From NCBI RefSeq assembly GCF_932294415.1, contig NC_065541.1, positions 50,260,290 through 50,324,289 of the forward strand: DNA of 64,000 nt, in the 5' to 3' direction. Origin of the DNA: Quercus robur (lineage: Eukaryota > Streptophyta > Magnoliopsida > Fagales > Fagaceae). The notes below the pieces were generated by a model. It was not told where the DNA came from. It saw nothing but the letters and a program-made list of their open reading frames with translations, and ran no database searches. Shown here in pieces: positions 3,799 through 64,000 of this stretch. A program made the translations under genes and the position numbers. How positions within the stretch are numbered: position 1 is the stretch's first letter; each line of letters starts with the position of its first letter.

Positions 3799-3869
3799 GG
3801 CTACTTTCCTTCCTGCTTTTCCTCTTGCTTTTTCGGTGAGAAATGAAAATGAGTAACGAAGGGTCAAAT

Positions 3870-4455
3870 AAAGTCTAGAAGGATGTCAAAGATTCATGAT
3901 AAGTTGGTAACTGCCCCTTTTTTTCTAATCATTATTATCCAAATTTTAAAAATACTATTTTTACTATATTTTTATAAAAAATTTTAAGCGACAGACAAAA
4001 TAATAATTTTAATAGTAGTTTTAAATTAGAATTAATAACGTAAATTTCAGTTAGATTAACTGATAAAGTCTATACAAATACAAATAGAATATGACTTTTG
4101 TCATAACATGATAATTCATCTTTGAGGCTATACAAGATTTTTTAAGCATTTGATTGTTCCTTCGAGTGTGTTTGGTTTCCATTCTAACACACTTGTATAT
4201 AATTAAAAGGAGGAATCTTTTGGGATAACTCCAAGATGCTAGTGAGATGTTTCAAATTTAAGACCTCATGAATCTTATGAGTTCCTTAGCAACCACTAAA
4301 CCAATCCCTAGGAGTTTTCTAAGGGTCGAATCAAGAGTTTGAAGTAATCTAACGGGAGTAAAAGCATTCATGCGCTACACAATGTATTTAGATTTAAATC
4401 ATGGTTATTGATCAATCAAGACAAAAAATGCCTACAAATTAAAATTGAAATTTCC
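3870..4455. other. OMT1 upstream region and remnant of OMT2 intron 3
   Basis: From about 4080 to 4455 the sequence matches OMT4 intron 3 (about 44930-45240), so it is the 5' part of an intron that belonged to OMT2. The homology ends before the last exon would appear, which marks a rearrangement border between OMT2 and the OMT1 promoter. From 3870 to 4080 there is AT-rich sequence upstream of OMT1; I see no convincing TATA box. Confidence 0.6.
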
Positions 4456-7499: not shown

Positions 7500-8420
7500 C
7501 GAAGGGCTGCTCGGTTGCTATTCTCAGATGAAATTGAACGGGCCCCTATGCCGAGTGGATTTACAAGACCGCCATTCAATTCCTACGACGGGAAGACAGA
7601 CCCTGTGGAGCATGTCAGTCATTATATCCACATGATATCCTTGCATGCACACAATGATGCCTTGATGTGTAAGGTATTCCCCTCCAGTCTCGGTTCCAGG
7701 GCCCTGAGATGGTTCAGTGGGTTATGAAAAGGCTCCATTCGTAGCTTTGCCGAGCTGATTCAAGAGTTCGACAATAGATTCGTGACATGTAGCCGAGTGT
7801 CGCAGCTGGTGGATGCGTTACTTTCCATAAAGATGAGGGTCGGTGAAACCCTTCGGAGTTACGCCAGCTGGTACTGGGAACTCTACAACGAGATTGGTGG
7901 AGGAAATGAGAAGATAGTGGCAAGCACCTTCAGGATGGGGCTCCCCGAAGATTCTGAATTATGGGAGTCGTTGACGAAAAGACCTCCCGAGGATATAAGG
8001 CAACTTATAAGGTGCATTGAGGAGTATAAATGCCTGGAAGATGATCGGCTACAAAATAAGGGGAAAGCCCCGTTACTAGGGAGATCTCGACAGGGTGTTA
8101 TCCCGGCAAGACCAAAAAAAGATTTCAGGATGCAAGAACCAGAGGCGCAAATTGAGGGAGTTAATGTGGCGTTCAAAGAACCTGTGCACAAAATTCTAGA
8201 TCAGATTAAGAATGAATCATTCTTTAGGTGGCCGAACAAGATGGGGGGTGACCCATCTCGAAGGAACTAAAACTTGTATTGCACATACCATAGGGACAAA
8301 GGGCACACCACCGAGCAGTGTCGGGTACTAAAAGATCATCTCGGGCAATTAGTAAAAGCAGGGTATTTGAAAGAGTTTGTAGTGGACTCCGCAGACCGGG
8401 ATGCTGACCAGGGTGTTCAG
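7500..8420 (+). pseudogene. gag region of the Tat element (fossil)
   Basis: Retrotransposon gag domain recognised from YDGKTDPVEHV and the long helical stretch after it, followed by a zinc-knuckle-like CTYHRDKGHTTEQC characteristic of Tat gag proteins. It would form the particle that packages element RNA. The region is broken. Confidence 0.75.
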
Positions 8421-8499
8421 CAAAAAAGGAATCCCCTCCCGCCACCGTTGGGAGTGATCGAAGTCATCCACGCTGCCCCAAGAGGTACAGCAGCAGTTA

Positions 8500-9090
8500 A
8501 AGGGGTACTGACAGTGGCTTGCACGAAAGGAGAATCACCCGAGAAGAGGATGAAAATTGGTCGGCTAACCATCTCTTTCAGCGAAGAAGACTTGAAAGGG
8601 ACGATCCAACCTCATGATGATGCGTTGGTAGTAACAGCTCGGATAAGCGGGTTCTTGGTAAAAAGAGTGATGATAGACCAAGGAAGCAGAGCCGACGTGA
8701 TGTACTTGGATCTGTTCGAAGGGCTCGGATTGAAGAGTCAGGACTTAGCGAAGTATGACACGCCACTGGTCTCGTTTGACGGAAGGGTCATGGTTCCTGA
8801 AGGGCAAATTTCTCTCTCGGTGGACATGGAAGGCAAGGAAGTAATAGTGACCTTCATAGTAGTCCGGTCATTCTCACTGTACACTGCAATCCTGGGAAGG
8901 CCGTGGATCCACGCAATGAAGGCCGTTCCGTCCACCTTGCACGTGAAAGTGAAATTTCCCATCGAGTATGGAGTCGCCGTGGTGCGAGGGAACCAACGAG
9001 TGGCTAGGCAGTGTCTGGTCGCCGCAGTCAGATGGAAGAGCGAACAGCTTGGACAAGCGGGGGAGACCGAAAAAGAAACTTTATAGCAAT
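8500..9090 (+). pseudogene. Protease region of the Tat element (fossil)
   Basis: Aspartic-protease-type fold recognised from the stretch around MIDQGSRADVMY, then GLKSQDL and ILGRPWIHAM, the usual order in plant Ty3/gypsy proteases. It lies between gag and reverse transcriptase, as expected. Confidence 0.65.
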
Positions 9091-9189
9091 CATAGAAGCC
9101 CCGAGGGGAAACGGGGGCGGACGTTGCTGAGGAGGTTTTAAAGGTCAGAATTTTTCCGGACAATGACAGGTATTTCCAGATAGGCATGA

Positions 9190-10060
9190 GCATGAATGAC
9201 CAAGAAAAGGTAGAGATGTTGTTGTTCCTTTTACAGAACGTGGATGTCTTTGCCTGGAGTCCGTACGAAGTGCCTGGCGTAGATCCTGAGTTCATTGTCC
9301 ACAAGCTTAACGTGGACCCATCATTCCCCCCGAAAAAACAAAAATCGAGGAGAGCATCGAAGGAGCATGTTGACGCGATGAATTTGGAAGTCCAGAGGCT
9401 AAAGGAAGCAGGGGTGATAAGGGAAATATTCTTCCTGAGGTGGTTAGCGAATACGGTGGTGGTGAAGAAAAAGAATGGTAAATGGAGAGTTTGTGTGGAT
9501 TTCACAGACTTGAATACGGCATGTCCCAAGGATCCGTTCCCAATGCCCAAGATTGACCAACTAGTAGACGCCACGTATGGGCACCCGAGGATGAGCTTCT
9601 TGGATGCTTTCCAGGGGTACCACCAGATTGCCTTGGCGCTCGAGGACCGAGAAAAGACAGCATTTATTTCCCCGAGTGCAAACTATCACTACGAAGTCAT
9701 GCCGTTTGGATTGAAGAACGTCGATGCTACATACCAGCGGATGATGACGAGGATGTTTCGAGAGAAAATTAGGTGCACAATGGAGGTATACATTGACGAC
9801 ATGGTGGTAAAGAGCAAAAAGGAGTTGCAACATATGGAAGACCTCCGGGGAGTATTTGAGATACTCCGGCAGCACAAGTTGCGCTTGAACACCGAGAAGT
9901 GTACTTTCGGTGTGGGGGCTGGCAAGTTCTTGGGTTATATGATTTCTACTCGGGGGATAGAAGCCAATCCCGACCAGATAGATGCCGTGAATCGCCTTAG
10001 ACCACCGAGTAATCCAAAGGAAGTACAAGTGCTAATCGGGATGTTAGCCGCCCTAAACTG
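9190..10060 (+). pseudogene. Reverse transcriptase region of the Tat element (fossil)
   Basis: Recognised by NGKWRVCVDFTDLN, the palm motif YIDDMVVKS, and KCTFGVGAGKFLGYM, a clear match to the Ty3/gypsy reverse transcriptase family. Confidence 0.9.
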
Positions 10061-10099
10061 ATTCATCTCCAAATTCGCAGATCGCTGCAGACTGTTTTA

Positions 10100-10560
10100 T
10101 CAACTTTTGAAGAAGTGGAAGGAGTTTCATTGGGACAAGGAATGCGACAAGGCCTTTCAAGAACTGAAGGAATACTTGGCAAAAGCACCCATGTTAACGG
10201 CCCCGGAGTCCGGGGAGGATTTGTTTATGTACCTCTCAGTGTCTGACCATGCCGTGAGTGCTGTGTTACTAAGGGACCAAGGAGTACAGCAGCCAGTGTA
10301 TTACATAAGCAAAACCTTAGTAGATGCCGAGACGAGGTACCTGCCCCTTGAGAAGCTAGTTTTGGCACTGGTGCACGCCACGAGGAAGTTGCCGTATTAC
10401 TTTCAGGCTCATACAGTATTTGTCCTCACCGAGTATCCCCTACAGTCGTTGTTAAAAAGATCGGACTTCACGGGCCGAATAGCCAAATGGGGAACTCATT
10501 TGGGTTCGTTCGACATAAGGTACCGACCGCGAAGCTCGGTAAAGGGACAGGTTCTTGCTG
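10100..10560 (+). pseudogene. RNase H region of the Tat element (fossil)
   Basis: The RT-linked RNase H is recognised from VYYISKTLVDAETRY, PLEKLVLALVHA and YRPRSSVKGQVLADF. This form is usual right after a Ty3/gypsy reverse transcriptase. Confidence 0.8.
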
Positions 10561-10599
10561 ATTTCATTGCAGAATTCACCCCTAAGAACGATGGGAAGA

Positions 10600-10946
10600 T
10601 AATTTGTAATGCGGAACGTCGTTCGTGGAAAGTGTTTGTAGACGGCACTTCGAATGCTATGGGGGCCGGAGCTGGTATTATCATAATCACCCCGGAGGGC
10701 ATACGATTAGAACACTCCTTCATATTAGGATTCAAAGCCTCAAACAACGAAGCCAAGTACGAGGCCTTCTTGGCCGGGTTGAGGGCTGTATTGCGTTTGG
10801 GCGCGAAAGATGTTGAGATTTATTCAGACTCTCGGCTGGTCGTTTATCAAATCATAGGAAGCTTTGAAGCTCAGGACTCTCGGATGAAAGCCTATCTGAG
10901 TGCAGCTAAGCAGATCATTGTCCGGTTCGGGACAGTGCCCATGTAG
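10600..10946 (+). pseudogene. Second, archaeal-type RNase H of the Tat element (fossil)
   Basis: A second RNase H fold begins at KVFVDGTSNAMGAGAG and continues through NNEAKYEAFLAGL and VEIYSDSRLVVYQI. An additional RNase H of this archaeal/plant type after the first is a known hallmark of Tat-lineage elements and is the main basis for the lineage call. Confidence 0.8.
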
Positions 10947-11219
10947 GTCGGGCACAAAACAGACATGCCGACTCGCTGGCCACGTTGGCTTCATCCTCTA
11001 CCGAGAATATACCTCGGCTGGTCAAAATAGAGCTTATAAGGGAGCCGAGCATCGAGGTGAAAAGTGATGACAACCTGGCTGGGGTTGAGGTTACCATGGT
11101 GTCAATGGCAAATCCGTGTTGGATGAACCCGATCATAGACTTCCTAGCCGAGGATAAAGTTCCGGACGACGAAAAGGAGGCCAAAAAGATTCGTCAGGTG
11201 GCTCCCCGGTACTAGCTGT

Positions 11220-12336
11220 CGGCAGATCGCAAATTGTACTGGAGGTATTTCGCAGGCCCTTACCTTTTATGCCTTCATTCTGAGAAAGTGAACGAACTTC
11301 TGACTGAGCTTCATGACAAAGTGTGTGGTGGCCATGTCGGGGGACGGTCTCTGGCGCACAGGTCAATGACTCAGGGGTTTTGGTGGCCACAGATGTAGAA
11401 GGATGCCACGGAATATGTCCGGAGGTGTGAACAATGCCAAAAGCACGCCTCTCTAATCCACCAGCCAGCAGATCGTCTAAACCCCGTCAGCAGCCCATGG
11501 ACATTCTCGGCCCCTTTCCCCGAGCAACGGGTAACTGCCGATTTGTATTGGTGGCAGTGGATTACTTCACGAAGTGGGCGGAAGCCGAGGCCGTAGCCAA
11601 CATCTGGGATATTGACGTGAAAAAGTTTGTATGGAAAAACATAGTCACAAGGTTTGGGGTAACGAACTCACTAGTATCAGACAATGGGCTACAGTTCGAT
11701 AGCAAAGCTTTCCGGGCCTTCTGCAGCGATCTCGGCATTAAGAACAAGTATTCAACCCCGGAATACCCTCAAAGCAACGGCCAAGCTGAGGTAGTGAACA
11801 AGACGATTTTAAATGGGCTGAAGAAGAGGCTGGACGGGGCAAAGGGGAGATGGGTTGAAGAGCTGCCTAACATTTTATGGGCCTATCGTATGACTCCCAG
11901 AAGATCCACGGGTGAGACCCCTTTCTCTTTGACATATGGGGCAGAGGCCGTAATACCAACCGAGATGAGCTTATGCAGTGCATGGGTTGTAGGATTTGAC
12001 CTTGCCTAGAACGCCGACCTGATGATGGAGCGCTTGGACTGGTTAGAAGAATGTCGAGAGGTCGCAACCATACGGCTCGCAGAGTATCAGCAGAAACTAT
12101 CCCAGAGATACAACCAAGATGTAAAGGGGAGGGAATTCAGTGCCGGGGAATTGTTGCTAAGGAGGGTCGTGGGAAACATGCAAGATGTAGCTACCGGGAA
12201 GCTTGCTCAAACATGGGAAGGGCCGTACAGAATTACCACCATCGCTGGCGCGGGGGCTTACTACCTAGAAGATCTTGACGAGAGGCCGCTCCCTCGGCCA
12301 TGGGATGCTCACAATTTAAAGAAGTTCTACCTGTGA
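11220..12336 (+). pseudogene. Integrase region of the Tat element (fossil)
   Basis: An HHCC-type N-terminal segment, then the catalytic core recognised from GPFPRATGNCRF, VAVDYFTKWAEAE, SDNGLQFDSKAF and YPQSNGQAEVVNK, then a C-terminal part ending HNLKKFYL. This is the order expected for a Ty3/gypsy integrase. Confidence 0.85.
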
Positions 12337-17520: not shown

Positions 17521-18427
17521 TGTTGGGTTAAGATAACTTGATCTCGGTTAATTAATTCAATTAATCAAGTTGATTAATTAAGTCAAATTACATGCGAATC
17601 GTGGAGGCACCAACAAATCACCAAATAAACTAAATGCAATGAAAATAAATTAGACACGGTGATTTGTTAACAAATGGAGCTTGTAAGGAAAAAACCCCAT
17701 CGAGTGATTTAAGGTCACCACTCTCAAGAATTCACTAATCAACAATCAAGTAATTACAAGTATAAGGAATCTTACCACTACTCTCGCCTATCCCGAAATA
17801 CCAACCTACAGTTGAACTCTTACTCCAAAACTCAATTAGACTTCATCTTCTAGTAGTCTTTTTTCCCTTGATGCACAAATCTCCAATTTGTGACTAACCC
17901 TTTTGCACAGATCCCAGTATGTGACTAACTCTAGCAACTTAAATGGATGTTGTTGGCTGCAAATTTTTCACTTCATCAACAATGAAGATCAGGATGCACT
18001 TGGTTGCAAAACCTTATGGCGTACAAACATAGTTGGTCTCTGTATCCGTGTGTGACAGCTCTTAAAATAAGTTTTATATATGTCTAGGATTGTGAGAAAA
18101 GAAACACTAAACAAATACATAAGCTTGGCCCGAATTTCAAATCTGAAAATTGTAATTCTTAATAGATTGAGTTTCTATCAAGGCATCTGTCAAGCTTCTC
18201 ATTTAGTCTTAATAGCAGTATCTATTGAGCTATTTGTCGAGATTTAATGAAACAACTTTTCTTTACTTATTTCTTGGATCAATCTTCATATCTTTAATAC
18301 GAACACTAATTTATATGCTTGAACAACATATTCTTGATGAATTAAACTCAACTTAGATCTACCTAATTACAAATAAAGTGCATTTTGTCAAAGGATTGAC
18401 CAATTACATAAAATATGACCCTAAGAC
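17521..18427 (-). mobile_element. Probable solo LTR or LTR fragment, copia-like, in OMT2 intron 1
   Basis: About 0.9 kb that separates two stretches matching OMT4 intron 1. Its left edge reads TGTTGGGTTAAG on the plus strand, so on the minus strand it ends in CTTAACCCAACA. The duplicate at 39483-40140 starts TGTTTGGGTCATATT on the minus strand, so TG...CA ends are plausible. It has no coding part and I could not find a target duplication, so the class is uncertain. Confidence 0.45.
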
Positions 18428-19384
18428 TAAGCAATTCCGAGCATGGTAATGTATATGAAGCAGATCATGAATAAAAATAGGAAAAAAGACATGACACACC
18501 AGCTAGCCAAGGAAGACCTTGTCTTGAAGCAAGGCCATGAAGGGACCCAATGAAACGCCATCTTCATTAGGCACAAAGTGTTTAGACATAGGAGTAAGAC
18601 TGTAGAGCCTCTAGAAAGACCCAAAGTTCCCATGCATCGTCAGCAACCACAGCACAACCAAGCACAGAGTCGCTGACCAGCAGCTTGAGAATGTGGTATG
18701 GCTGCGTCGGGGTTCTTGGTGGGCATCTGAGCTACAATCTGTGAAGGAGAGAGCTTGGCTCCAGGACGCGCTTTGGCTAAGATATCAAAAACCCCAAGCT
18801 CAATGGCCTTAAGATCATGGGCAGCACAATGGATGTCACCAGCTGCATGGCATGGGAGAAACTCTCTTTTTCTTCTATTTTTTGATCACCATCAAGAATG
18901 ATTCGGTGGGATTCTTTAGGAGAGGCCATTAAATAAACTTTGAATTCATTTGAACCTCTTTCGTTCACAAACTGGAAATTTTGTTTATTGGATTTATAGA
19001 GATTAAATGATTTAAGGATACGAATGTTGGGTGCATTGCACCACACGGGTCCAGCCTACACCTTGGCTTAGCTCATTAAATGAGCTTGTTGGACAAGCTG
19101 CTGAGAAGTCAGCAAGTTTAAAGGAGCTTCCTAAAGAAGTTTGCAAAAAGGAAGAATTGAAGTCATCTTTTTCTCTAATATTATATACAAAAAGTCAAGG
19201 CAAGTTGGCTTGCATTTCTTGTGAATTGATGACAAGCGTGTGGAAGGAAGAAAAGAATATAAAGATGAATAAATAAAAGGAAAGATCATTCAGTCATTTG
19301 GTGCAGAGAGAGTCCCAGAGTGTGAGGACAGTGTACTCTTAAAAAACTGCGTGAGTGAGAGCATGTAAAAGAGGAGAAAAACAT
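17776..19384. repeat. Left copy of segmental duplication, part B
   Basis: Colinear with 39483-41240: the LTR-like piece of intron 1, exon 1 of the OMT pseudogene and its promoter with TATA box. The match continues after the inserted long-TIR element, 25103-25694 against 41240-41646. The right copy has a 140-bp element at 40719-40858 that this copy lacks. Confidence 0.85.
18992..18998 (-). promoter_or_regulatory. TATA box of OMT2
   Basis: Minus-strand TATAAAT about 63-69 bp upstream of the OMT2 start codon at 18929. The same box is conserved in OMT3 (40704-40710) and OMT4 (50970-50976). Confidence 0.6.
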
Positions 19385-28746: not shown

Positions 28747-29796
28747 CTAATTGATATTACTCTCATTCAAAGCCAATCCCGAATTATTAAGAGGAGGGAT
28801 TTTCGAGATTGTGCTATTGTGGGAATTTAATTTTTCCGTTTCCTTCCCAAGGTCTACCATCATTGATTGCTTTCCATATGAAGTCATTACCTCATTATGA
28901 GTTTCAGCCTCTTCACTATCAGCCCTACCTGTCTCCATCTCCACCGTGTCACTCCCATGAACTCCCACCTCCATTGGGACACCATTGTTAACCTCTGACA
29001 CCTTTGTTTTCATCGTCTTGGGGACCTCTTTGTCAAGGATTCTTGAAACAAAAAATACATTCTTCCCTCTTGACTGGAAAGGTTCGGCTCTAAGATGGGG
29101 GCCAAATTGTTTTTGCTTTGATGTCAATGTTCCCCTGCTTTGAATCCACACTTCACAGTCCCTATCATTGTGATTCAGACTCGCACACCAATAACATATA
29201 TTTGGAAGTCGCTCATATTGAAACCGCACCCAAGACTTCTTACCGTTTTCCACCGTAATAACTCTCCCTCGGCATAGCGAAAGATTAATATCCAGTCTAA
29301 CACGAACCCGTATGAATTTTCCTCCATCATCCTCAGTTGATTCCGGCAACCTATGCACCTCTCCAACAATATCACAAATGTTCTCTGCCACTTGTTTTGA
29401 CATAAAATGGACTGGGATATCATGAACTTGCACCCAAAACCACGCTTTATCAAAAGTTAACTCATTGAGTTTCGAGGACTCCTCAAATTTTTCCATGACC
29501 ACCAAATGCTTGTCGAAATTCCAAGGTTGATTTTCAATGATCCTTTCCTCTTCAGACATATTATCAAAGATAAAAAGCACCACATGATTTCCCATGTTTC
29601 GAATTTTAAAGCCATTCGTCGTTCTCCACAATTGTTTGAAAGTCCGCACCACTGCTTCCATAACAAGGTACCGTGGAGTCAGAAATTTTGTAGCTACAAT
29701 GCTTTCCTTGGACAATTCAACTTGTGGAAGAGCAAACCCCAAGTCCTCCTATTCAAAGAGAGTTAAATTACTCCAATTCCTAGTAAGATCCTCCAT
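28747..29796 (-). pseudogene. LINE ORF1, DUF4283 plus zinc knuckle
   Basis: ORF1 protein of a plant L1 element, thought to bind element RNA. It likely starts at the ATG at 29796 (MEDLTRNWSNLTLFE). A TAG at 29749-29751 then interrupts an otherwise open frame of about 330 codons. A DUF4283 domain covers about residues 30-170 (AVVRTFKQLW, GNHVVLFIF, PWNFDKHLVVMEKF). It is followed by the zinc knuckle CYWCASLNHNDRDC (CX2CX4HX4C). The C-terminal third is polar and unstructured in appearance. Confidence 0.8.
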
Positions 29797-31126: not shown

Positions 31127-31131
31127 AGTTG

Positions 31132-31891
31132 TGTAGGGACACAAAATCTTTAACGGCCCAAAAACGATGTTGGGCTCGCACACGGAAAGTCCCTCACAAT
31201 AATATTTGTAGAGAGTGGGCTTGAAAGGCCAGCGTTGGATCACAGGGCGACACTTCGGGCCGGACTATAGGTGAACCAATATGAGAAAGAGCTTTAGGCT
31301 GGATATTCAGGCCCTTCAATCTTGTATCTAGGAGGATTTGGCTCCTCGGATCATGTCCGAGGAGCGATGATGCCGTCTCCGGTTACCCGTCGGTGGGTTT
31401 TTAGGTGGTGTCCGGAGTATATTATCCAGGCGTTCTCTTTCATTAAGTCTTTCTCCAGAAGCTAGATGGGAGAGCCTCTTTCTTTTGGTCACATAACATT
31501 CTCTTTTATACTAGCCTACGTTCATTGTCCTTCGTCCACGTGTAGGGTCGATCTTTCCAGGACAGATATCTGTCCCATCAGTCTAATCCCAAAATTGCTG
31601 GAGATGATCCATAAAGCCTAAGATCCCGGCTCTGTTAGGGGCAGTGTCATGTCAGGGAAGGGTATTAAAGACAACTTCCCTAGGATATTTTCTGATCTTT
31701 CTAGCTTACTCGTGTTCCATTCCTATCCCTGAGGTTTTGGACCTGCCGAGGACGAAACCGTCCTCGGCTGTGTCTTTGGGCCACTTTTTATGTTTCCTAG
31801 TTTCGAGCTTGGGCCCTGGCCTCCTTCAGTTTAGGACCGGTGGGCTTCCCATAAGCGTGTGGGCCGGACCCATAAACTATTGGACCCCACA
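31132..31891 (-). repeat. 3' LTR of the U5-U5 element
   Basis: On the minus strand it starts TGTGGGGTCCAATAG and ends GTGTCCCTACA, 760 bp. It shares CACAGCCGAGGACG-like blocks and the overall order with the LTR starting at 63511, so both belong to one family. A TATA-like region (AGTATAAAAGAG, minus) lies near 31515. Confidence 0.8.
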
Positions 31892-31905
31892 TTAGCCCCT
31901 CAAAA
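31892..31905 (-). promoter_or_regulatory. Polypurine tract of the U5-U5 element
   Basis: On the minus strand, TTTTGAGGGGCTAA directly precedes the LTR start TGTGGGG. Confidence 0.6.
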
Positions 31906-32219
31906 TCCTGCTGTCCAACGTCATGATAGGACAGGTGGATTTTGATGATGTCAAGCCCTTATTGCCGTTCACTTTCTTCGGATCTTGATCAACACTGGCA
32001 ACTCTTCCCCTCCCCAAGGAACGTACCGGTCTACGAGCCGTTTTTCCTGGATTTGCGTACGTTGCCGTTATGCCGCGTGGTTATCTGCAGCGTGTCTTTA
32101 ATATCTTCCCATTTACGAGACCTCCCAGATACAACGGTTACTGATGGTGTAGGAGAACGAAGCGGCGCGTTATACTCTGGATTTCCCTGGGGATCTGAGT
32201 GCGTTACATTCCCTCTTCT

Positions 32220-33900
32220 TCGTCCCCTATATAAAGAGAGAAGACAGAGGGTGACTTCTTCATATCCGAATCCCTCACGTTCTTCCCAGAGTCCACTTCC
32301 TCCATCCGGTTATTCCCTATTCAATAATACCTCTCTCATAGTAATCCACCATGAACAAATCCTTCCTTTCTCAGAAACGCCATGTCCTAACAAAACTCGA
32401 GATGGCTCGGTCGGGGCAAGGATGGCGGAGGCTTAAGATTTGCCTCCCCATTCTTTTAGCCAAAATCCGAAGCAGGGACTCGTCACACCCCATCTCTGGT
32501 GTGACTGAGTCGAAAACCTCCCTTGTCATCTCCATCTGCTCTCTCATGAGCATACCTAATATGGCTCCCCTTCTCCCTCTTTTGCTCCTTTTACTTTCTT
32601 TTCATTGCTTCCCTCTTCTTCTCCTCCTTCCCGCTCATGTCCTCCATCTTCTTTTTCCCTTGCATTCTTCAGCGACAAGAGTTTGCTGAAGTGCTTCCAT
32701 GTGTTCCAATTCGTCTTCCTTCTCCTTCATTATTTTTGTATAAGGCTCTTCTCCTGATATGAGCAGCACTGAGGCATAGATTTCAGAGAGACTTTGAAGG
32801 CGAGTTCAGAAGACACCTGATGGTTTACTTATTTGTATTACGGATGTTGTTATTGTTTTAGCAGTTCATTTTTTGTATAGGCTTGTTTAAGCCCTTCCTT
32901 GTACGTTGTAACAATTTTTCATATTAATAAAAGTTAGTGTTACTCTATTTCGTATGTCTTGTTTATATATTCTAACAAATGTGAAAGCGCTGCTCGGCAT
33001 AATAGTATAGCATTTGAATCAATAATAACTAAGGCCAAAGTAATCGTTGATAAAAAGATGCCACGATAACTTTAACAAAATTATTATGCAACATAACAAT
33101 CCGACCAGTGAGGAATGAGACTTATCTTAAAGTTAGCCGTGATGGGTGTTAAATGCTCGATAAGGTGTAAGAAGTAGTTATCCGAGGACATGTTACCCAC
33201 CGGATGAATGGCCTCCTTAGGTTGACGATCATTAGGTTATTCTGCCATCTCCATGATACGCGAGCCTTAACCTTTTCCAGTGTTTAAGCCGAGAAATTTC
33301 TTCATTCGGGCAGTTGATTTCCCAAGAAGCCTGAGTCCGAGGACTTTGCAAAACCTGAGTTTTGTTTAGGACTTATGCGTTTTATCTTATGTACTTGATT
33401 TTTCCCTTAGGCTTGAGTTCGATACTTGTGTCTTTATCGGTACTTGGTTTTCCCTTTTAACTTGAGTCCGAGGACCATGCAAGCCTTAGGCTCTGTTCGA
33501 GACCAATGTCTGCACCAGTACTTGGTTTTCCCTTTTAGCTAGAGTCCGAGGACCATGCAAGCCTTAGGTTCTGTCCAAGACCAATGTTTGCATCAGTACT
33601 TGGTTTTCCCTTTTAGCTTGAGTCCGAGGACCATGCAAGCCTTAGGTTCTGTCCAAGACCAATGTCTGCACCAGTACTTGGTTTTCCCTTTTAGCTAGAG
33701 TCCGAGGACCATGCAAGCCTTAGGTTCTGTCCAAGACCAATGTCTGCATCAGTACTTGGTTTTCCCTTTTAGCTTGAGTCCGAGGACCATGCAAGCCTTA
33801 GGTTCTGTCCAAGACCAATGTCTGCATCAGTACTTGGTTTTCCCTTTTAGCTTGAGTCCGAGGACCATGCAAGCCTTAGGTTCTGTCCAAGACTTTGAGT
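32220..33900 (+). other. Internal module 1: antisense TATA, leader, poly(A) signal, 78-bp repeats
   Basis: In plus-strand order: TATATAAAGAG near 32228; a leader with a short open frame containing AAACGCCATGTCC and AAAATCCGAAGCAGG; AATAAAAG near 32935 as a poly(A) signal; then a 78-bp tandem array (about 33400-33895). The same order recurs at 34210-36130. The direction is opposite to the retroelement. The reading frames (32351-32689 and others) have no known domain, so whether the unit makes a protein is doubtful. Confidence 0.5.
33400..33895 (+). repeat. 78-bp tandem array (array 1)
   Basis: About six units sharing GAGTCCGAGGACCATGCAAG and CTTAGGTTCTGTCCAAGACC. The unit length is a multiple of three, so a 26-residue repeat (starting MQALGSVQDQ) stays open on the plus strand in 33711-34007. 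Its core is shared with array 2. Confidence 0.9.
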
Positions 33901-34209
33901 TCAGATTTTCCCTTTCATTGAGCATTTCCCGAGGTGCCAAACAGGGTGTCCCTGGGCCTTCACGCAAAGCGGGCTTGGGCCGCGAATTCAATGAATCCGC
34001 GGATTAAAAGATATTTCTGCAAACTCTGGCCACGCAGTACTTCTCTGACGCCCCAAGGATCGAGGCGCGCCTTTACGATGCTCCTTGAGTCTCTTGGCTG
34101 CAGTTGATGTTGGAAGTTGAGCCAAGACTACTTTGTCTGTAGTGCTCCTTGGGACGCCGCGTAAGTTGACTGCCATTATCTTGTCTTTTCAAATAAATAG
34201 GAGGGAGAG

Positions 34210-36135
34210 AGGGTTGCTTTATATATACACCCATCCTTTTATTTTTCTCTCACATCACGCTTCCCATATCCGGAGCTCTCCTTTCTTGGCATAACATGTT
34301 GAAAACGAGGGTTGGGAAGAAAGAACTTTCTCCGCCACAGAAGCGCCGTGTCCTCATGAGGCTTATAACAGTAAGGCAGGGGCACGGGAAGCACAAGTTC
34401 AGGAGAGTACTCCATCTCCATCGAGGGGGAACGGCGTCTCTTCCTCTTTTAGTCAAAATCCGAAGCAGGCTCTGTTCATGCCGGCACTCTGGTATGTCAG
34501 AAGAAAGATTCTCCGCCATCAGCGCCTCTGCTTAGCAGCAGGCGAATATTTAGAGAAAGCCCCTCAGTTTCCCACTCCCTGCACCTTTCCTTCAACGGTG
34601 CCAGGCTCAAGTTGGGTTTCTTTGGCTGCCTGAGTTATGGGCATGTAGGAGCGCGGGGGAAGAATAAGGTCTCGGAGCTGTAGCCAACCTTTCCTCCGAC
34701 ATACCTCCTCGGCTTTCTCCAGCTTTCTTGTATTTTTCTTTTTCTTGCTTATGTAGTAAGCTTTGACGTATGCTGATTCCAGCTTTTCATTGTACACTGT
34801 ACTATTTCTTCGTTGTAATAAAAATGGAAATTGATTTACATGTTTTAAGCGTTGATCTACTGGGCAATACAACTTTGTGAACGAATGTGCTCTATGTATG
34901 TGTTGCTTTGAGAATATTTAGAGCTAAATAGCCTGAAACGTAATCTAACTCACTCCAACTTATCCAATACTATCAGGCAATATATCGATAATTTGTAATA
35001 AATCAAACTTAGTAAACTGACCGGGGTAGCAGTTGACTACTCTTGTGATAAACGCGCAAATGTCGCCCAAGAATGATGACCTCCTCACAATCCATCCGAT
35101 CTATCGAACGGGAAGTAGGGTACTCCGATCGTGCTTTTGTGTATCTGGTTTTTCATTTGCGTATTTGGTTTCCCCATAGGTTTGAGTCCGAAGACTATGC
35201 AATGCCTCGGTTCTGTCCATTACTTGTAAGATTTCTTTTTTGTACTTGGTTTCCCCATAGGCTTGGGTCCGGGGACCATGCAAGGCCTTGGTTCTGTCCA
35301 TTACTTGTAAGATCTCTTTTTTGTACTTGGTTTCCCCATAGGCTTGGGTCCGGGGACCATGCAAGGCCTTGGTTCTGTCCATTACTTGTAGGATTTCTTC
35401 TTTGTACTTGGTTTCCCCATAGGCTTGGGTCCGAGGACCATGCAAGGCCTTGGTTCTGTCCATTACTTGTAAGATCTCTTTTTTGTACTTGGTTTCCCCA
35501 TAGGCTTGGGTCCGAGGACCATGCAAGGCCTTGGTTCTGTCCATTACTTGTAAGATCTCTTTCTTGTACTTGGTTTCCCCATAGGCTTGGGTCCGAGGAC
35601 CATGCAAGGCCTTGGTTCTGTCCATTACTTGTAAGATCTCTTTTTTGTACTTGGTTTCCCCATAGGCTTGGGTCCGAGGATCATGCAAGGCCTTGGTTCT
35701 GTCCATTACTTGTAAGATCTCTTTTTTGTACTTGGTTTCCCCATAGGCTTGGGTCCGAGGACCATGCAAGGCCTTGGTTCTGTCCATTACTTGTAAGATC
35801 TCTTTTTTGTACTTGGTTTCCCCATAGGCTTGGGTCCGAGGACCATGCAAGGCCTTGGTTCTGTCCATTGCTTGTAAGATCTCTTTTTTGTACTTGGTTT
35901 CCCCATAGGCTTGGGTCCGAGGACCATGCAAGGCCTTGGTTCTGTCCATTACTTGTAAGATCTCTTTCTTGTACTTGGTTTCCCCATAGGCTTGGGTCCG
36001 AGGACCATGCAAGGCCTTGGTTCTGTCCATTACTTGTAAGATCTCTTTCTTGTACTTGGTTTCCCCATAGGCTTGGGTCCGAGAACCATGCAAGGCCTTG
36101 GTTCTGTCCATTACTTGTAAGATATATATATTTTT
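34210..36135 (+). other. Internal module 2: antisense TATA, leader, poly(A) signal, 81-bp repeats
   Basis: A second, diverged copy of module 1: TTTATATATAC near 34216, a leader with AGAAGCGCCGTGTCC and AAAATCCGAAGCAGG (34296-34535), a 3' end with GTAATAAAAATGG near 34815, then an 81-bp tandem array (35130-36125). The gap and order match module 1, so the internal region seems to have arisen by duplication of a unit of about 2 kb. Confidence 0.5.
35130..36125 (+). repeat. 81-bp tandem array (array 2), open on both strands
   Basis: About 12 nearly identical units of 81 bp with GGTTTCCCCATAGGCTTGGG, TCCGAGGACCATGCAAGGCC and TTGGTTCTGTCCATTACTTG. Because 81 is 27 codons and the unit has no stop in one frame on each strand, long frames appear: 355 codons on plus (35073-36140) and 336 codons on minus (35101-36111, unit starting MDRTKALHGPRTQAYGETKY). 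Neither resembles a known protein. Units are more alike here than in array 1, so this array grew or was homogenised more recently. Confidence 0.95.
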
Positions 36136-36217
36136 TTTAAAGTAGTCTTTTCTCTATACTGATTTATTTTTCGAAGGTCGGCCCCTAGGCCAGGGAGGGA
36201 GGAGTTGGCTCGAGGCC

Positions 36218-36310
36218 GTAAGCCCCTAGAGCTGTCCGCTCCGTTGGCAGTGCAAGGCGTAGCCCCTAGAGCTGTCCGCCCCGTTGGCAGTGCAAGGCGT
36301 AGCCCCTAGA
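36218..36310. repeat. 40-bp tandem repeat
   Basis: About 2.3 copies of a 40-bp unit with AGCCCCTAGAGCTGTCCGC and TTGGCAGTGCAAGGCGT, between array 2 and the primer-binding site of the U5-U5 element. Confidence 0.85.
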
Positions 36311-36424
36311 CGAAGCTTATGGCGGAGCAACTACTACACGTCGCCGGAGATGAGAGAAACTCGTGAATCTCTGTTTGCGAGAGGGCTGACTCATGTGCCA
36401 CTCGTGCCAACGCGCAAGCCTTTC

Positions 36425-36441
36425 CCACGGACGGCGCCAAT
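36425..36441 (-). promoter_or_regulatory. Primer-binding site of the U5-U5 element
   Basis: On the minus strand TTGGCGCCGTCCGTGGG follows directly after the U5 end CCCTACA. It shares the TTGGCGCC core with the site at 6901, which sets the direction of the element. Confidence 0.7.
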
Positions 36442-36709
36442 TGTAGGGACACAAAATCTTTAACGGCCCAAAAACGATGTTGGGCTCGCACACGGAAAGT
36501 CCCTCACAATAATATTTGTAGAGAGTGGGCCTGAATATCCAGCCTAAAGCTCTTTCTCATATTGGTTCACCTATAGTCCGGCCCGAAGTGTCGCCCTGTG
36601 ATCCAACGCTGGCCTTTCAAGCCCACTCTCTACAAATATTATTGTGAGGGACTTTCCGTGTGCGAGCCCAACATCGTTTTTGGGCCGTTAAAGATTTTGT
36701 GTCCCTACA
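36442..36709. repeat. Hairpin of two U5 copies at the upstream end
   Basis: 36442-36530 equals 31132-31220 in direct orientation (89 bp, no difference seen). 36527-36709 equals the reverse complement of 31132-31314 (183 bp, no difference seen). The two overlap by GGGC, which is present at both junction points, so a 4-bp microhomology joins them. Confidence 0.9.
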
Positions 36710-36845
36710 AGTTGCATAAAACATTATTAGTAGGGAAAGACATCTTGTGCATCTCCAATAGGACCAGTACGAATAGGAAAGTGTGCATTCTCCCCTTTGT
36801 TTTCCATGAGTTTAAGGCAAGCTACCTAACCCTAAAAGATTAAGC

Positions 36846-37120: not shown

Positions 37121-38173
37121 ACCATCTATGTTGTCTTCCTTTCCAGTTGTTTGCATACAAGAACCTGGATTTCAAACCAGACAGGTTAGTGTCAATTTGT
37201 TATTCGGACTCAATTCACCAAAAACTTAGTTCCAATTACATAATTGCTATCATTTGGAAGAATTTTTAAGAAAATATTTTTCAACATGGGTCATCAACAA
37301 AATTTCAGGAAAACTCTAGAAATAATTAACTTCATTTAGAGGGAACAAAGGAGAAGGACCCTGATTAATAACAAAGTTTGAGTAAGATATTCTACACAAT
37401 TACTTGCAATAGGTAATAGGAAATGAAAAGAACTGAAGGGGATGGAGAGACATCCACAAACAAATATTTACGTTAGTCACATAATATTTAGTGAGTTTGA
37501 ACCTCTTTTACCCCGTACCAAATGCCACATTAGTGAGTTTGAACCTCTTTTCTGATGGTAAGAGAGCAAACTAGGATCTAAGTAACCATACACTTCGTCA
37601 TGATCAGTTAAGAGTAAATGTGGTATGTTATGATGATTTTGAGCATCTCAGGAGTTCTCATATTGCAGCCTACAGCAGGAAAACTTGTCAATAGTTGTGC
37701 ATGCTAAGCAAGGTAGTTTGTGATCAAATGAAATTTGCCACTCGGGGTTTCAGGGCAAAAACCACAAGGATTGTATGCATCTACAGAAGCTTCATGATAG
37801 CAAGCTTTAGGTCTATTTGGTTGGAGGGATGGAAAAGTGAAAGGACAGAAAATGGTGGGAGAATGGAAAAGTGGGAGGATAGAAAAGATTTTAATTTATC
37901 TCATTTTTGTTTGGTTGGGAGTGGAAAAGTGGAGGGATGGAAAAAGTGAGTTTGTATAAATTTACTTATACACCCTTGTTAAAAAATGATGGCCAATTAA
38001 AACAAAAAAGTGACAAACAACCAAAAAAAGAAGAAGCAATCACCCAATTTATTAAAAAATAAAAATCATGTCCCAAAAGAAAATCATGTCTAGTTAAACC
38101 AAAAAAAAAAAAAAAAAAAAACAAAACAACTATCACACCCACAACCTGGGAAATATATGATAAAAAAAAAGGG

Positions 38174-38231
<58 letters not shown>

Positions 38232-39480
38232 CAACGTGCCCACCCAACCCAAGAAATCAAAAAATAAAAAAAGAAAAAAAAGAAAAGAAAGAAAGAAAGG
38301 AAACATTCAGGAAAGAAAAGAAAAGAAAAAGGGGCAACGTGCCTAGCTCCCAAAAGAAAAAGAAAAAAAGAAAAAAAAAGAGGAGCTGAACATGAACATT
38401 TTTGTCCATTAAGTAGCCTCATTTTATCCCTTTAGTTTTCTCTCCATTTTGGAGAGAAAACTTTTTGGTGAGACTGGAGAGAAAACATCCAAGCCGCACA
38501 ATTTATTTTCCTCCCTCTCCACCTAACCAAACATACAGGCTTTTTATGAATGTTCAAATTGACAGCAAACCCAAAAAGTGATTGAAACAAAGGTTATGGC
38601 CATTCAAAAAACCTTTCTACATATTTCTCAACAAGAATGATTCCTTTGGTCACAAAAATTGACTCTAACCAAATCAAACACCTCCCAACAAGAGCACTTC
38701 AATACTAATAATAGACTCATAGATATGTCGTAAAACCACACTTCAATGGCTGATTCATGATTAAAGAAACCAGAACAAAATCAGAGAGAGATGAAAAATA
38801 GGAAGCTAAAATCTCAATTCTCATGAATGAGCCACAAATAGGGTCCCCTAACTAATCTGAGCCTTGGCAATCCCTTAACATGAAAAGGTAGCCAATCACA
38901 GCATCCAAATCTGAGAGTGTAGGTGCTGCACCATTTGATGGAAGATACAAGGAGTGCCATCATTAGTTTGATTAATAAGAATAATTTCATTATCCAATAT
39001 TTAGACACAAAACATCCCATATTGATATCATAATATCACCAAAAACTGGTCCTTACCCTATCTCAGTAATTCGGCAAAATAGTTTAGAAGAGATTGTCAG
39101 CTCCTACAAAAGATACGTTCAACCTACAGTGCAATTCCTTACCCTATCTCAGTAATTAGGCAAAACAATTTAGAAAAGATTGTCAGCTCCTACAAAAGAT
39201 ACATTCAACCTACAGTGCAAATGATACAGATTCCTTATCTTTCTTATTGAACTCCATAACAGTCGAATTACAGATAAAACAAGTAAAAGAAATGGTCTTA
39301 AACCCAGCTCCAAATGCCAAGTCAAACAATTCTTGTTGCATCCGCACCTTTCCTCCCAGTTTTTGAGTCATCATAAGCATATCAAGTAGGGATTTGCCCC
39401 ATGCAAAAGTAGTAATCTCTGGGAAAATTGGAAGAATTTGCTCCACAACGATTACCTTTCCATCTTTTGGAAGAGAATTG
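37121..39480. repeat. Right copy of segmental duplication, part A'
   Basis: Colinear with 1-1530. It ends abruptly at 39480 within the OMT last exon, where sequence homologous to 17776 onwards takes over. Confidence 0.85.
37810..38540. mobile_element. Foldback MITE with (GA)n in its centre
   Basis: Present here and absent from the matching point in the left copy (near 653), so its limits are set by the comparison. Ends are inverted: GGTCTATTTGGTTGG on the left and, reverse-complemented, GCCTGTATGTTTGGTTAGG on the right. A (GA)n run of about 55 bp lies at 38177-38231, among poly-A and AAAG repeats. There is no coding sequence. Confidence 0.7.
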
Positions 39481-40641
39481 TAGCACTACTCTAGCCTATC
39501 CTGAAATACTAACCTACAGTTGAACCCTTGTTTCAATACCTAATTGGACTTAATCTTCCAGTAGCCTTCTTTCCCTTAATGCACAAATCTCCAATCTATG
39601 ACTAGCCCTTTTGCACGGATCCTAGTACGTGACTAACTCCAGCAACTTGAATGGATGTTATTGGTTGCAAAGTTCTTCACTTCATCAACAATAAAAATCA
39701 AGAAGTACTTGGTTACAAAACCCTATGGTAGTAGCTTCTTGGTCTCTGTATCCGTGTGTGATGGCTCTTAAAATAAGCCTTATATATCTCTAGGGTTATA
39801 AGAAAAGAAACCCTAAACAAATACATAAGCTTGAGCCGAATTTCAGATCTGAAAATCTAAAAATCAGAATTCTCAATAGATCGAGCTTCTATCAAGGCAT
39901 CTGTTGAGCTTCTCATTTAATCTTAATAGCAGTATCTATCGAGCTATCTGTCGAGACTTAATGAAATAGTTTTTCTTCACTTGTTTCTTGGATCAATTTT
40001 CATGCCTTAAATACAAACACTTGATATGCTTGAACAACATATTCTTGATGTATTAAACTTAACTTAGATCTACCAAATTATAAATAAAGTGCATTTTTTC
40101 AAAGGATTTGCTAATTACATAAAATATGACCCAAACATAGAGCAATTTAGAGCAAGGTAATGTATATGAAGCAAATCATGAATAAAAATAGGAAAAAAGA
40201 CATGACACACCAACTAGCCAAGGAAGACCTTGTCTTGAAGCAAGGCCATGAAGGGACCTAATGAAACGCCATCTTCATTAGGCACAAAGTGTTTATTCAT
40301 AGGAGTAAGACTGTAGAGCATCTGAAAAGACCCAAAGTTCCCATCGTTCGCACCCACAATGCAACCAAGCACAGAGTCGCTGACCAGCAGCTTGAGAATG
40401 CGGTATGGCTGCATCGGGGTTCTTGGTGGGCATTTGAGCTACAATTTGTGAAGGAGAGAGCTTGGCTCTAGGACGCGCTTTGGCTAAGATATCAAAAACC
40501 CCAAGCTCAATGGCCTTAAGGCCATGGGCAACACAATGGATGTCACCAGCTGCGTGCATGGCATGGGAGAAACTCTCTTCTTCTTCTATTTTTTTGATCA
40601 CCATCAAGAATGCTTTAGTGGGATTCTTTGGGAGAGGCCAT
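39210..40641 (-). pseudogene. OMT3, chimeric COMT-like pseudogene (exon 1 fused to last exon)
   Basis: Exon 1 at 40641-40211 resembles OMT2 exon 1 (MASPKESH, then a stop codon; further frame errors follow). The last exon at 39480-39210 resembles OMT1 exon 4 ([17 protein letters not shown] to the same C-terminus, [12 protein letters not shown]). Between them only LTR-like intron sequence remains (39483-40140); exons 2 and 3 are gone. The join at 39480/39483 puts the middle of an exon against intron 1 of another copy, as an unequal exchange or deletion would. It carries GGKVR, like OMT1, so that change predates the duplication. Confidence 0.85.
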
Positions 40642-41646
40642 TAAATAAAATTTGAATTGATTTGAACCTCTTTTGTTCACAAACTAGAACTTTTGTTTAT
40701 TGGATTTATAGAGATTTAGGGGCTGTTTGGTAGTGTAACTAGAATAACAGTTTTTAGTGTTTAAACAACATTATACGTATTTTCACAAACTTTTTCACCT
40801 ACAAGTATTTCTAAAAAATACAAACAACATTACTAGAACATCATTACCAAACGGGCCTTGAATGATTTAAGGATAAGAAGGTTGGATGCATTGGGTCCAG
40901 CTTACACTTTGACTTAGCTCATTAAATGAGCTTGTTGGACAAGCTGCTGAGAAGTCAACAAGTTTAAAGGAGCTTCCTTAAGAAGCTTGCCAAAAAGGAA
41001 GAATTGAAGTCATCTTTTTCTCAATATTACGTACAAAATCAAGGCAAGTTGGCTTGCATTTATTGTGAATTGATGACAAGCGTGTGGAAGGAAGAAAAGA
41101 AGATAAACATGAAGAAATAAAAAGAAAGGTCATTCGGCCATTTGGTGCAGAGAGAGTCCTAGAGTGTGAGGACATTGTAGTCTTGAAAAACTGCGTGAGT
41201 GAGTGCAAGCAAAAGAGGAGAAAAATATAGAGAGCAAGAGAAAATTGTGAGAGATAAACTGTGAGGAAAAGAGTAGTTAGCGAAAAGAGAAACAAAGTTT
41301 TTCTTTGCTCAAGTTGCATATCTAAATATTGTAATTTTTATTTAATATAGTGAAATTATTCGGAGTTTGTCCTGTGATTTTTTCCTTTCCTTCAAGGAGA
41401 AATGGTTTTCTATGTAAATTATTGTGTTCTTGTGTGGTTGTGCTTCTATTGTGTCTGCTAAAATTTATTCCCACTTATATTATTATATAGTATTTTTCCC
41501 AACAATGAAAACTAATGCTACCATTTTTTTTGTTTTTTTTTGTTTCACACTTGTTCACCATCAATATGTATATATATAATTTTTGACATATTGCAACATC
41601 ATTGTTTTCAAATCACATTATTCCGTTGCTCTTTTAATTGTATCCA
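39483..41646. repeat. Right copy of segmental duplication, part B'
   Basis: Colinear with 17776-19384 and then 25103-25694. It lacks the 5.7-kb MULE-like element and carries a 140-bp element (40719-40858) absent from the left copy. TATA box of OMT3 at 40704-40710. Confidence 0.85.
40719..40858. mobile_element. Small Tourist-like MITE
   Basis: 140 bp with inverted ends GGGGCTGTTTGGTAGTG and (reverse-complemented) GGCCCGTTTGGTAATG. The left copy of the duplication has no such insert at about 19005. Flanks TTA and TTG could be a decayed 3-bp PIF/Harbinger target duplication. Confidence 0.55.
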
Positions 41647-51911: not shown

Positions 51912-52257
51912 AAGTAATTCTAACTTTTGTAACAACTTTCACATCCAAAATGTGATCGCTTAACATGAGGAGCATGATGTTACACTAAAGTTGCATAAAA
52001 TATTATTTGCAGGAAATACATCTTAACTCCAACACGTCAATGAAAGTGTGCTGAGTGCATTCTTTCTTCCCCTCGTTTTCCACGATTTAAAGCCAAGCTA
52101 CCAAACTTTTGGCCAAAAATCACTTTTAATACTTTTAAATATGGTACGATTTCATTTTAGTCAAGTTCAATTATTTCAATTTAGATTGCGTTTGGGATAA
52201 ACTATTTCAATTTCAATTTCAATTTAGGCTGACTTTAGTCAAGTTCAATTATTTATG

Positions 52258-63510: not shown

Positions 63511-64000
63511 TGTGGGGCCCAATAATTCGTGGGCCAATCCCATTTATTCATTGGGGCCCAAGGCCCGAGCCGAGAAGGGTTATAGCCCAGGATCGTTAAT
63601 ACAAGTACAAAATAGCCTTGGGACACAGCCGAGGACGATTTAGTCCTCGGCATGTCCGAGATCTCATAAGAAGAAAGGGCAAAAATGGTACAGAAACAAC
63701 TTGGGAAAAAATCTAAAATATCTGCACCAATAGAAAAGGGTATGCTGGAAAGTATAACGACCAGGGAAAGCTGCCTTTACTGCCATTCAATACTCTGCAC
63801 CTGACAGAGCCATACTCTCCAGCTTTTACAACCACCCCCAACCACTCTGGGTATGGGCTGATGGGACAAGTATCAGTCTTGGAATGTCGATCCTACACGT
63901 GGACGAAGGATAAAAAACATAGGCTAATATAAAAGGAAAAGGGAACAATCTAGACAGGGGGCTGGGAAAAATGGCCAAAAACCAGAGCCTCCCAGCCCGC
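63511..64000 (+). mobile_element. Start of a gypsy-type LTR retrotransposon, cut by the window edge
   Basis: Starts TGTGGGGCCCAATAATTCG and holds CACAGCCGAGGACG, CCTCGGCATGTCC and CCTACACGTGGACGAAGGAT, in the same order as the LTR at 31891-31132 (minus). A TATA-like AATATAAAAGG lies near 63930. Only about 490 bp are visible; whether a whole element follows cannot be seen. Confidence 0.7.

What the first reader, a model, noticed from the sequence alone, without database searches (positions are those of the whole stretch)
31132..36709. LTR element integrated with U5 ends on both sides
Seen directly: the element has a perfect 5-bp target duplication (AGTTG), so both outer ends were used by integrase. 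The left end is the U5 end of a normal 760-bp LTR. The right end is also a U5 end: 89 bp of U5 next to the primer-binding site, followed by 183 bp of the same U5 inverted, joined at a 4-bp GGGC overlap. Usual elements have U3 at one end and U5 at the other. Inference: the hairpin arose during reverse transcription (a template switch or self-priming at the microhomology) before integration, and the integrase accepted two U5 ends. Identity of the three U5 copies suggests a recent event.
Basis: partly seen in the sequence, partly recalled or inferred. Interest (0 to 1): 0.75.

Follow-up and report, generated by a model that had tools for sequence, protein, structure and literature searches.

The report
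Retrotransposon inserted by two U5 ends
A jumping element with no recognisable genes of its own is joined to the chromosome by the same kind of end on both sides, most likely because its first short DNA copy folded back and primed its own second strand, a side reaction known from HIV.

Summary
The element reads on the minus strand: left, a complete 760-bp 3' LTR; right, where the 5' LTR should be, 89 bp of U5 beside the primer-binding site, then 183 bp of the same U5 inverted, sharing GGGC. The U5 copies are identical; AGTTG flanks both sides. A paralogous empty site 37 kb away aligns through both flanks with a single AGTTG, so the element entered in one event with two U5 ends. All 29 other 5' ends that were fetched have a complete LTR (40 scored of 2897 candidates), so this looks like a one-off. 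Best explanation: a minus-strand strong-stop DNA ending 183 nt from the U5 edge snapped back. Its last 9 nt pair with its own positions 86-94 (8 Watson-Crick, one G.T), the predicted fold (pair probability 0.93). It copied itself back through U5 and the tRNA and served as plus-strand strong-stop DNA. The base kept at the G.T position fits this polarity. Self-priming is known in HIV; the paper lists I saw showed no integrated product of this form. The junction-specific genome search did not complete.

The parts
31127..31131 (.). target-site duplication copy, AGTTG (left)
   Evidence: single copy in the empty site L010
31132..31891 (-). complete 760-bp 3' LTR (TGTGGGG...CCCTACA in sense); outer edge is the U5 edge
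   Evidence: all 29 other 5' ends fetched match LTR positions 1-760
31132..31314 (-). U5-proximal 183 bp of the LTR, present again inverted at the right end
31503..31510 (-). TATA-like box (TATAAAAG, LTR sense 382-389); implies that a run-off strong-stop DNA would be about 345 nt, longer than 183 (inference)
   Evidence: a similar box in the related LTR at 63511-64000; the start site itself was not tested
31892..31909 (-). polypurine-like tract next to the 3' LTR (AGGATTTTGAGGGGCTAA in sense)
   Evidence: role inferred from position; the same bases follow the LTR in L004, L005 and L008
31892..36441 (-). internal region without recognisable gag or pol; two tandem arrays (78 bp and 81 bp units)
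36422..36439 (-). primer-binding site (begins TGGCGCCGTC), two bases (AT) from the LTR edge
   Evidence: the matching tRNA was not tested, the motif type and its 18-base length are recalled
36442..36530 (-). remaining 5' LTR: last 89 bp of U5 in normal orientation next to the PBS
36527..36530 (.). GGGC overlap at the turn-around; C at 36531 (T in the other copy) is the polarity mark
36527..36709 (+). inverted U5, 183 bp, whose outer edge is a second U5 edge used for integration
36710..36714 (.). target-site duplication copy, AGTTG (right)

Best explanation
A non-autonomous LTR retrotransposon was reverse-transcribed in a particle holding two RNAs. One tRNA-primed minus strand went the normal way and became the full-length minus strand. 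The other stopped after 183 nt of U5 (or was cut there). Its 3' end (TTCAGGCCC) folded back onto its own positions 86-94 (GGGCTTGAA), and it primed synthesis on itself, copying U5 from position 85 down to the U5 edge and into the tRNA. That product ends in U5 plus a copied primer-binding site, as a normal plus-strand strong-stop DNA does, so it took the place of that DNA in the second strand transfer. Copying it to its 5' end gave a linear cDNA with a U5 edge at both ends, which integrase processed and inserted with a normal 5-bp duplication. Shown: anatomy, single integration event, the matching stem, base retention at the junction, normal 5' LTRs in the other copies read. Inferred: the enzyme steps, two minus strands, and why the first strand stopped at 183.
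For: Anatomy exact. Empty site with one AGTTG. The DNA strand 1-183 has as its minimum-energy structure the 3' end in a 9-pair stem with 86-94, with P(86,183) = 0.926 at 37 C and 0.948 at 25 C; with the two extra bases AT at the 5' end, P = 0.94. Of 301 truncation points tested, 3 give a 3'-terminal stem of 9 or more in the predicted fold; 0 of 300 mononucleotide shuffles of the 183-mer do. 25 of 3000 random 183-mers of the window outside the element do; of 3518 upstream sites that match the last 4 bases of such 183-mers, 19 reach a pairing probability of 0.9. The opposite polarity offers 4 pairs. The inverted arm ends exactly at the U5 edge, where a minus strand starts (with its 2-base AT spacer), so no second coincidence is needed. 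U3 and U5 outer edges resemble each other (TGTGGGG / TGTAGGG). Integrases insert pairs of U5-mimicking ends concertedly in vitro, for Rev-A with a 5-bp duplication (PMC3790719, passages). Self-priming of HIV minus-strand strong-stop DNA is reported (PMC4668388, passages).
Against: The TATA-like box predicts a strong-stop DNA of about 345 nt, so the first strand would have had to stop early at 183; no cause was found. The stem was looked for after the junction was known, and the 4-base overlap is part of the observation, so only the extension to 9 and the predicted fold are independent support. Complementarity alone is less rare: without folding, 17 of 300 end positions have some upstream partner of 9 or more, and 3% of 200 shuffles have one at position 183; 2 of 181 four-pair sites extend to 9 or more when G.T is allowed, against 20 of 3680 in shuffles. 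One case only; no biochemical evidence. Copying in trans on another minus strand of the same sequence would leave the same product.
Confidence: 0.72

Rival explanations
1. Template switch of opposite polarity: a minus strand that had copied 89 nt of U5 jumped at GGGC onto another antisense U5 strand at position 183 and copied it to its 5' end, before integration.
For: It gives the same product and also ends at the natural 5' end of a minus strand; GGGC microhomology is present.
Against: Only 4 pairs at the primer end. If the primer had run on to position 94 to use the full 9-base match, T and not C would stand at 36531 (inference). Copying of the new tail into double strand lacks an obvious primer.
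Confidence: 0.13
2. Microhomology end joining of two broken linear cDNAs (one truncated in U5 at 89, one U5 fragment of 183 bp) before integration.
For: 4-bp overlap plus 4 of 5 further matching bases beside it; a single integration event is compatible.
Against: It needs two independent breaks in the same small region and a free double-stranded U5 fragment. The 9-pair 3' stem and its predicted fold would be coincidence.
Confidence: 0.08
3. Rearrangement after a normal integration: a replication or repair switch replaced U3, R and part of U5 by inverted U5 and returned exactly at the LTR edge.
For: The U5 edge plus PBS side (CCCTACAA) and the lost U3 edge plus target copy (CCCCACAA) are alike, so a second short microhomology exists.
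Against: It needs two switches, the second landing exactly on the element edge. All 29 other 5' ends fetched are complete.
Confidence: 0.05
4. Assembly or read artefact (palindromic chimera).
For: Inverted repeats are a known source of assembly errors (recalled); reads could not be inspected.
Against: The junction runs from the U5 edge directly into the expected target copy and a flank that aligns with the empty site. An artefact would not be expected to stop exactly at the LTR edge.
Confidence: 0.02

Closest known systems
TAR-dependent self-priming of HIV-1 minus-strand strong-stop DNA (PMC4668388, passages; Guo et al. 1997 seen only as a reference title there, not held)
   Same: A minus-strand strong-stop DNA folds back by a 3' hairpin and extends on itself.
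   Different: There the products are described as aberrant or abortive, and nucleocapsid protein suppresses them; here the product appears to have completed the second strand transfer and integrated. The hairpin lies in U5, away from the expected run-off end.
Template-switching complex LTR retrotransposon insertions in grasses (Sabot and Schulman 2007, PMC1950507, whole text read)
   Same: An aberrant reverse-transcription product of a plant LTR element, recognised by a 5-bp target duplication around the whole.
   Different: Those have three direct LTRs, two internal regions and normal outer ends; here an LTR is replaced by an inverted U5 and both ends are U5.
HIV-1 proviruses with asymmetric LTRs (PMC9278108, passages)
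   Same: The two LTRs of one provirus differ; the proposed model is an error in reverse transcription that uses both packaged RNAs.
   Different: Those are deletions, mostly in the 3' LTR. The paper also lists two proviruses with genomic inversions whose form the passages do not give; the passages describe no inverted U5 terminus.
In vitro concerted integration with U5-mimicking DNA (PMC3790719, passages)
   Same: Two U5 ends are inserted together, for Rev-A with a 5-bp duplication.
   Different: Synthetic DNA ends in vitro; here it is a genomic insertion.

Membership tests
Non-autonomous LTR retrotransposon | LTR with TG...CA ends | tested here: met
   760-bp left LTR; all 29 other 5' ends fetched match positions 1-760
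Non-autonomous LTR retrotransposon | two direct LTRs in this copy | tested here: not met
   the right LTR is replaced by 89 bp of U5 plus 183 bp of inverted U5; the three other copies read at both ends (L003-L008) have two
Non-autonomous LTR retrotransposon | primer-binding site next to the 5' LTR and polypurine tract next to the 3' LTR | tested here: met
   TGGCGCCGTC two bases from the LTR edge; polypurine-like tract; the tRNA match was not tested
Non-autonomous LTR retrotransposon | target-site duplication of fixed length | tested here: met
   AGTTG here with an empty site; GTATT in the copy L005/L006; the copies L003/L004 and L007/L008 lie in AT repeats, so their duplications cannot be delimited
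Non-autonomous LTR retrotransposon | no gag or pol | tested here: met
   9 ORFs of 80 aa or more, none with a retroelement domain in Pfam at E 0.01; two ORFs of the 81-bp repeat hit unrelated families, with no stretch that passes on its own
Self-primed strong-stop DNA product | 3' end of the minus strand paired with an upstream part of itself at the turn-around | tested here: met
   predicted 9-pair stem, P = 0.93
Self-primed strong-stop DNA product | first strand ends at the RNA 5' end (run-off) | tested here: inconclusive
   the TATA-like box suggests about 345 nt, not 183; the start site is unknown
Self-primed strong-stop DNA product | product seen in particles or in a reaction | not testable with these tools
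   needs biochemistry
Template-switching complex (Sabot and Schulman) | third, internal LTR and two internal regions | tested here: not met

The most novel reading that the evidence does not exclude
Self-primed minus-strand strong-stop DNA can replace the PPT-primed plus-strand strong-stop DNA in vivo: it completes reverse transcription and yields an integration-competent cDNA with two U5 ends. Families whose R-U5 folds into such a snap-back hairpin would then leave these U5-U5 insertions repeatedly, each dead on arrival because its 5' promoter is missing.
Probability: 0.4. Interest if true: 0.72.

Novelty: new variant of a known kind. Interest (0 to 1): 0.57.

Why it matters
If right, it is a genomic fossil of a side reaction described for HIV as abortive. 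It would show that the reaction can finish second-strand transfer, and that an integrase in a living cell accepted two U5 ends with a normal 5-bp duplication. It gives a searchable signature (PBS, U5, turn-around, inverted U5, target duplication) with which self-priming can be counted in sequenced genomes, and a prediction (turn-around points sit at feet of hairpins in the minus strand) that further cases can refute. It is also a source of long near-palindromes beside chromosomal DNA.

Tried and rejected
Autointegration was considered and rejected: it would join a U5 CA end to an internal site, whereas the turn-around lies inside U5 on both sides.

A spreading hairpin lineage was tested as far as possible. 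In one search (40 places scored of 2095 candidates) only this locus matched the 268-bp end across the junction; the others were this element's own left LTR and 38 places that match U5 only (query 85/86/87-268, with 1-102 or 1-94 on the other strand of the same place). Of those 38, six (L003-L008) were read and are complete LTRs; the other 32 were not read. In one search (40 scored of 2897 candidates) 30 loci were fetched: this one and 29 others. All 29 carry an LTR match from position 1 to 760 at 82-97% identity; at least one of them (L043) is the same LTR as L007. The 10 further scored places were not fetched. The junction pattern search was sent 14 times and never answered.

The run-off explanation for position 183 is not supported: the TATA-like box puts the RNA start about 160 nt further (inference). 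A model of the normal leader RNA shows the GGGC and TGAA parts of the same arm paired (the partner was not printed) and a strong hairpin 26 nt beyond; neither explains a stop at 183.

Conservation of the stem: 26 of 36 LTR rows keep all 9 pairs (one of them with an inserted base beside it) and 10 keep 8. The rows include this element's own left LTR and at least one LTR read twice, and no test against background conservation was made, so nothing is claimed from it.

The in-window paralog at 51985-52106 supports only the right edge; its upstream part does not match the left flank better than chance (11% of 300 shuffles reach the score). Exact 28-base U5 searches of genome contigs and viral contigs gave 0 matches, as expected for collections of prokaryotes and viruses. 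An earlier count said that the genome search had failed 8 times; it had failed 7 times.
Full report
What is there. The element occupies 31132-36709. The primer-binding site (36422-36439, minus strand) and the polypurine-like tract beside the left LTR show that it reads on the minus strand. The left end is therefore a complete 3' LTR (760 bp, 31132-31891) and the right end is where a 5' LTR should be. Instead there are 89 bp of U5 next to the PBS, in normal orientation, followed by 183 bp of the same U5 in reverse. The overlap is GGGC, and all shared bases are identical (183 of 183 and 89 of 89). U3, with the TATA-like box at LTR sense 382 (31503-31510 in the left LTR), and the part of the LTR beyond 183 are missing from this end. 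Nine ORFs of at least 80 aa overlap the element, none with a retroelement domain in Pfam, so reverse transcriptase and integrase must have come from another element (inference).

One integration event. AGTTG stands at both edges. The genome search, once it answered, found a paralog of the right flank just outside the window (L010). It aligns through both flanks with a single AGTTG and no gap at the insertion point: 456 of 508 aligned bases identical on the left, 105 of 114 on the right. This is an empty site. The whole element plus one copy of AGTTG is thus the inserted unit, and both of its edges are U5 edges. A second, more diverged paralog inside the window (51985-52106) starts to match at about the same right edge, but its upstream part does not match the left flank.

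Is it a lineage? The 268-bp end used as a query against the host assembly (785.7 Mb, 42 contigs) gave 40 scored places of 2095 candidates. Only this locus matched across the junction; the others match U5 only: this element's own left LTR and 38 more. Six of these were read and are complete LTRs; the other 32 were not read. A query with PBS side plus U5 gave 40 scored places of 2897 candidates. 30 loci were fetched, and in all 29 besides this one the 5' LTR matches positions 1-760. One copy shows a clear 5-bp duplication (GTATT, L005/L006). The nearest sister LTRs are 97.4-97.8% identical to this one (L003, L004). So the form is probably a single event. The lists are capped, and the junction-specific pattern search was sent 14 times and never answered, so more copies are not excluded.

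How it arose. Number the LTR antisense strand (the minus-strand cDNA) from the U5 edge. The sense strand of the element begins with antisense 1-183 and then runs on as sense 85-1 into the PBS. Read in that direction it is what a minus-strand strong-stop DNA becomes if its 3' end folds back and is extended. The fold exists: the last nine bases of 1-183 (TTCAGGCCC) pair with 86-94 (GGGCTTGAA), eight Watson-Crick pairs and one G.T, and extension from there begins at position 85, as observed. With DNA parameters the whole 183-mer adopts this stem as its minimum-energy structure, with pair probability 0.926.

Controls. A 3'-terminal stem of 9 or more in the predicted fold occurs at 3 of 301 truncation points, in 0 of 300 shuffled 183-mers and in 25 of 3000 random 183-mers from the window outside the element. 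Given a four-base 3' match, a pair probability of 0.9 or more occurs at 19 of 3518 sites. These controls were made after the junction had been seen. Without folding, 17 of 300 end positions have some upstream partner of nine or more, and 3% of 200 shuffles have one at 183, so complementarity alone is less rare.

Polarity. The two copies differ at the G.T position, and the genome carries the base of the strand that ended at 183 (C at 36531, not T). A switch in the other direction would have had four pairs, or would have left a T.

From hairpin to integrated DNA (inferred from the standard scheme of reverse transcription). The self-primed strand copies U5 to its edge and into the attached tRNA, so its 3' end carries a PBS like a normal plus-strand strong-stop DNA and can make the second strand transfer onto a full-length minus strand. 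Copying the hairpin to its 5' end gives a linear DNA with a U5 edge, plus the usual AT, at both ends. Integrases are known to insert pairs of U5-mimicking ends in vitro, for Rev-A with a 5-bp duplication (PMC3790719, passages), and the U3 and U5 edges of this family are alike (TGTGGGG / TGTAGGG).

What remains open. The TATA-like box puts the expected run-off end near 345 nt, so the first strand stopped early, or the RNA was cut or started elsewhere. The leader model did not explain 183. A copy in trans on another minus strand would look the same. The product should be unable to transcribe itself, as it lacks the 5' promoter (inference).

Literature. Sabot and Schulman 2007 (PMC1950507, whole text) describe template-switching complexes with three direct LTRs. 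HIV self-priming is cited in PMC4668388 (passages); asymmetric HIV LTRs, and two proviruses with inversions of a form not given in the passages, are in PMC9278108 (passages). The passages seen of PMC12220202 and PMC12789967 describe no such form. Nine searches listed 3 of 3, 20 of 34, 20 of 23, 15 of 156, 5 of 5, 12 of 21, 12 of 14, 15 of 454 and 15 of 24 matching papers. No title or abstract start among those listed describes an integrated U5-U5 element. The library lacks most subscription journals, so this is not proof of novelty.

Against the first version I corrected the TATA coordinates (by one base). I now say how many of the places were read, that the literature lists were capped, that saved the element as a BLAST query, and that the HIV paper mentions inversions.

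Noticed in passing
window 7728-12006 (+): Remains of a Ty3/gypsy-type element: reading frames with gag-like (weak, below Pfam's cut-off), reverse transcriptase, RNase H (including RVT_3) and integrase core matches (the name of the type is recalled); a possible source of enzymes, not tested.
   Followed up: partly
window 33429-33893 and 35161-36123: Two tandem arrays inside the element, 6 copies of 78 bp and about 12 copies of 81 bp, related to each other at about 75%.
   Followed up: no
window 63511-64000 (+): Start of another LTR (TGTGGGGCCC...) that shares parts of U3 and a TATA-like box with this element's LTR, cut off by the window end.
   Followed up: no
window 1-1524 / 37121-39485 and 17764-19381 / 39471-41225: Segmental duplications of 88-95% identity; the first one probably extends to the empty site just outside the window.
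   Followed up: partly
window 3235-3885 (-): Reading frame with an O-methyltransferase dimerisation domain.
   Followed up: no
window 28750-29748 (-): Reading frame with DUF4283 and a zinc knuckle, as often found in plant retroelement-derived sequence (recalled).
   Followed up: no
window 31341-31365 (LTR sense 527-551): A 10-bp perfect hairpin in the LTR (GCTCCTCGGA/TCCGAGGAGC), 26 nt upstream of the turn-around point in the RNA; possible pause or regulatory structure.
   Followed up: partly
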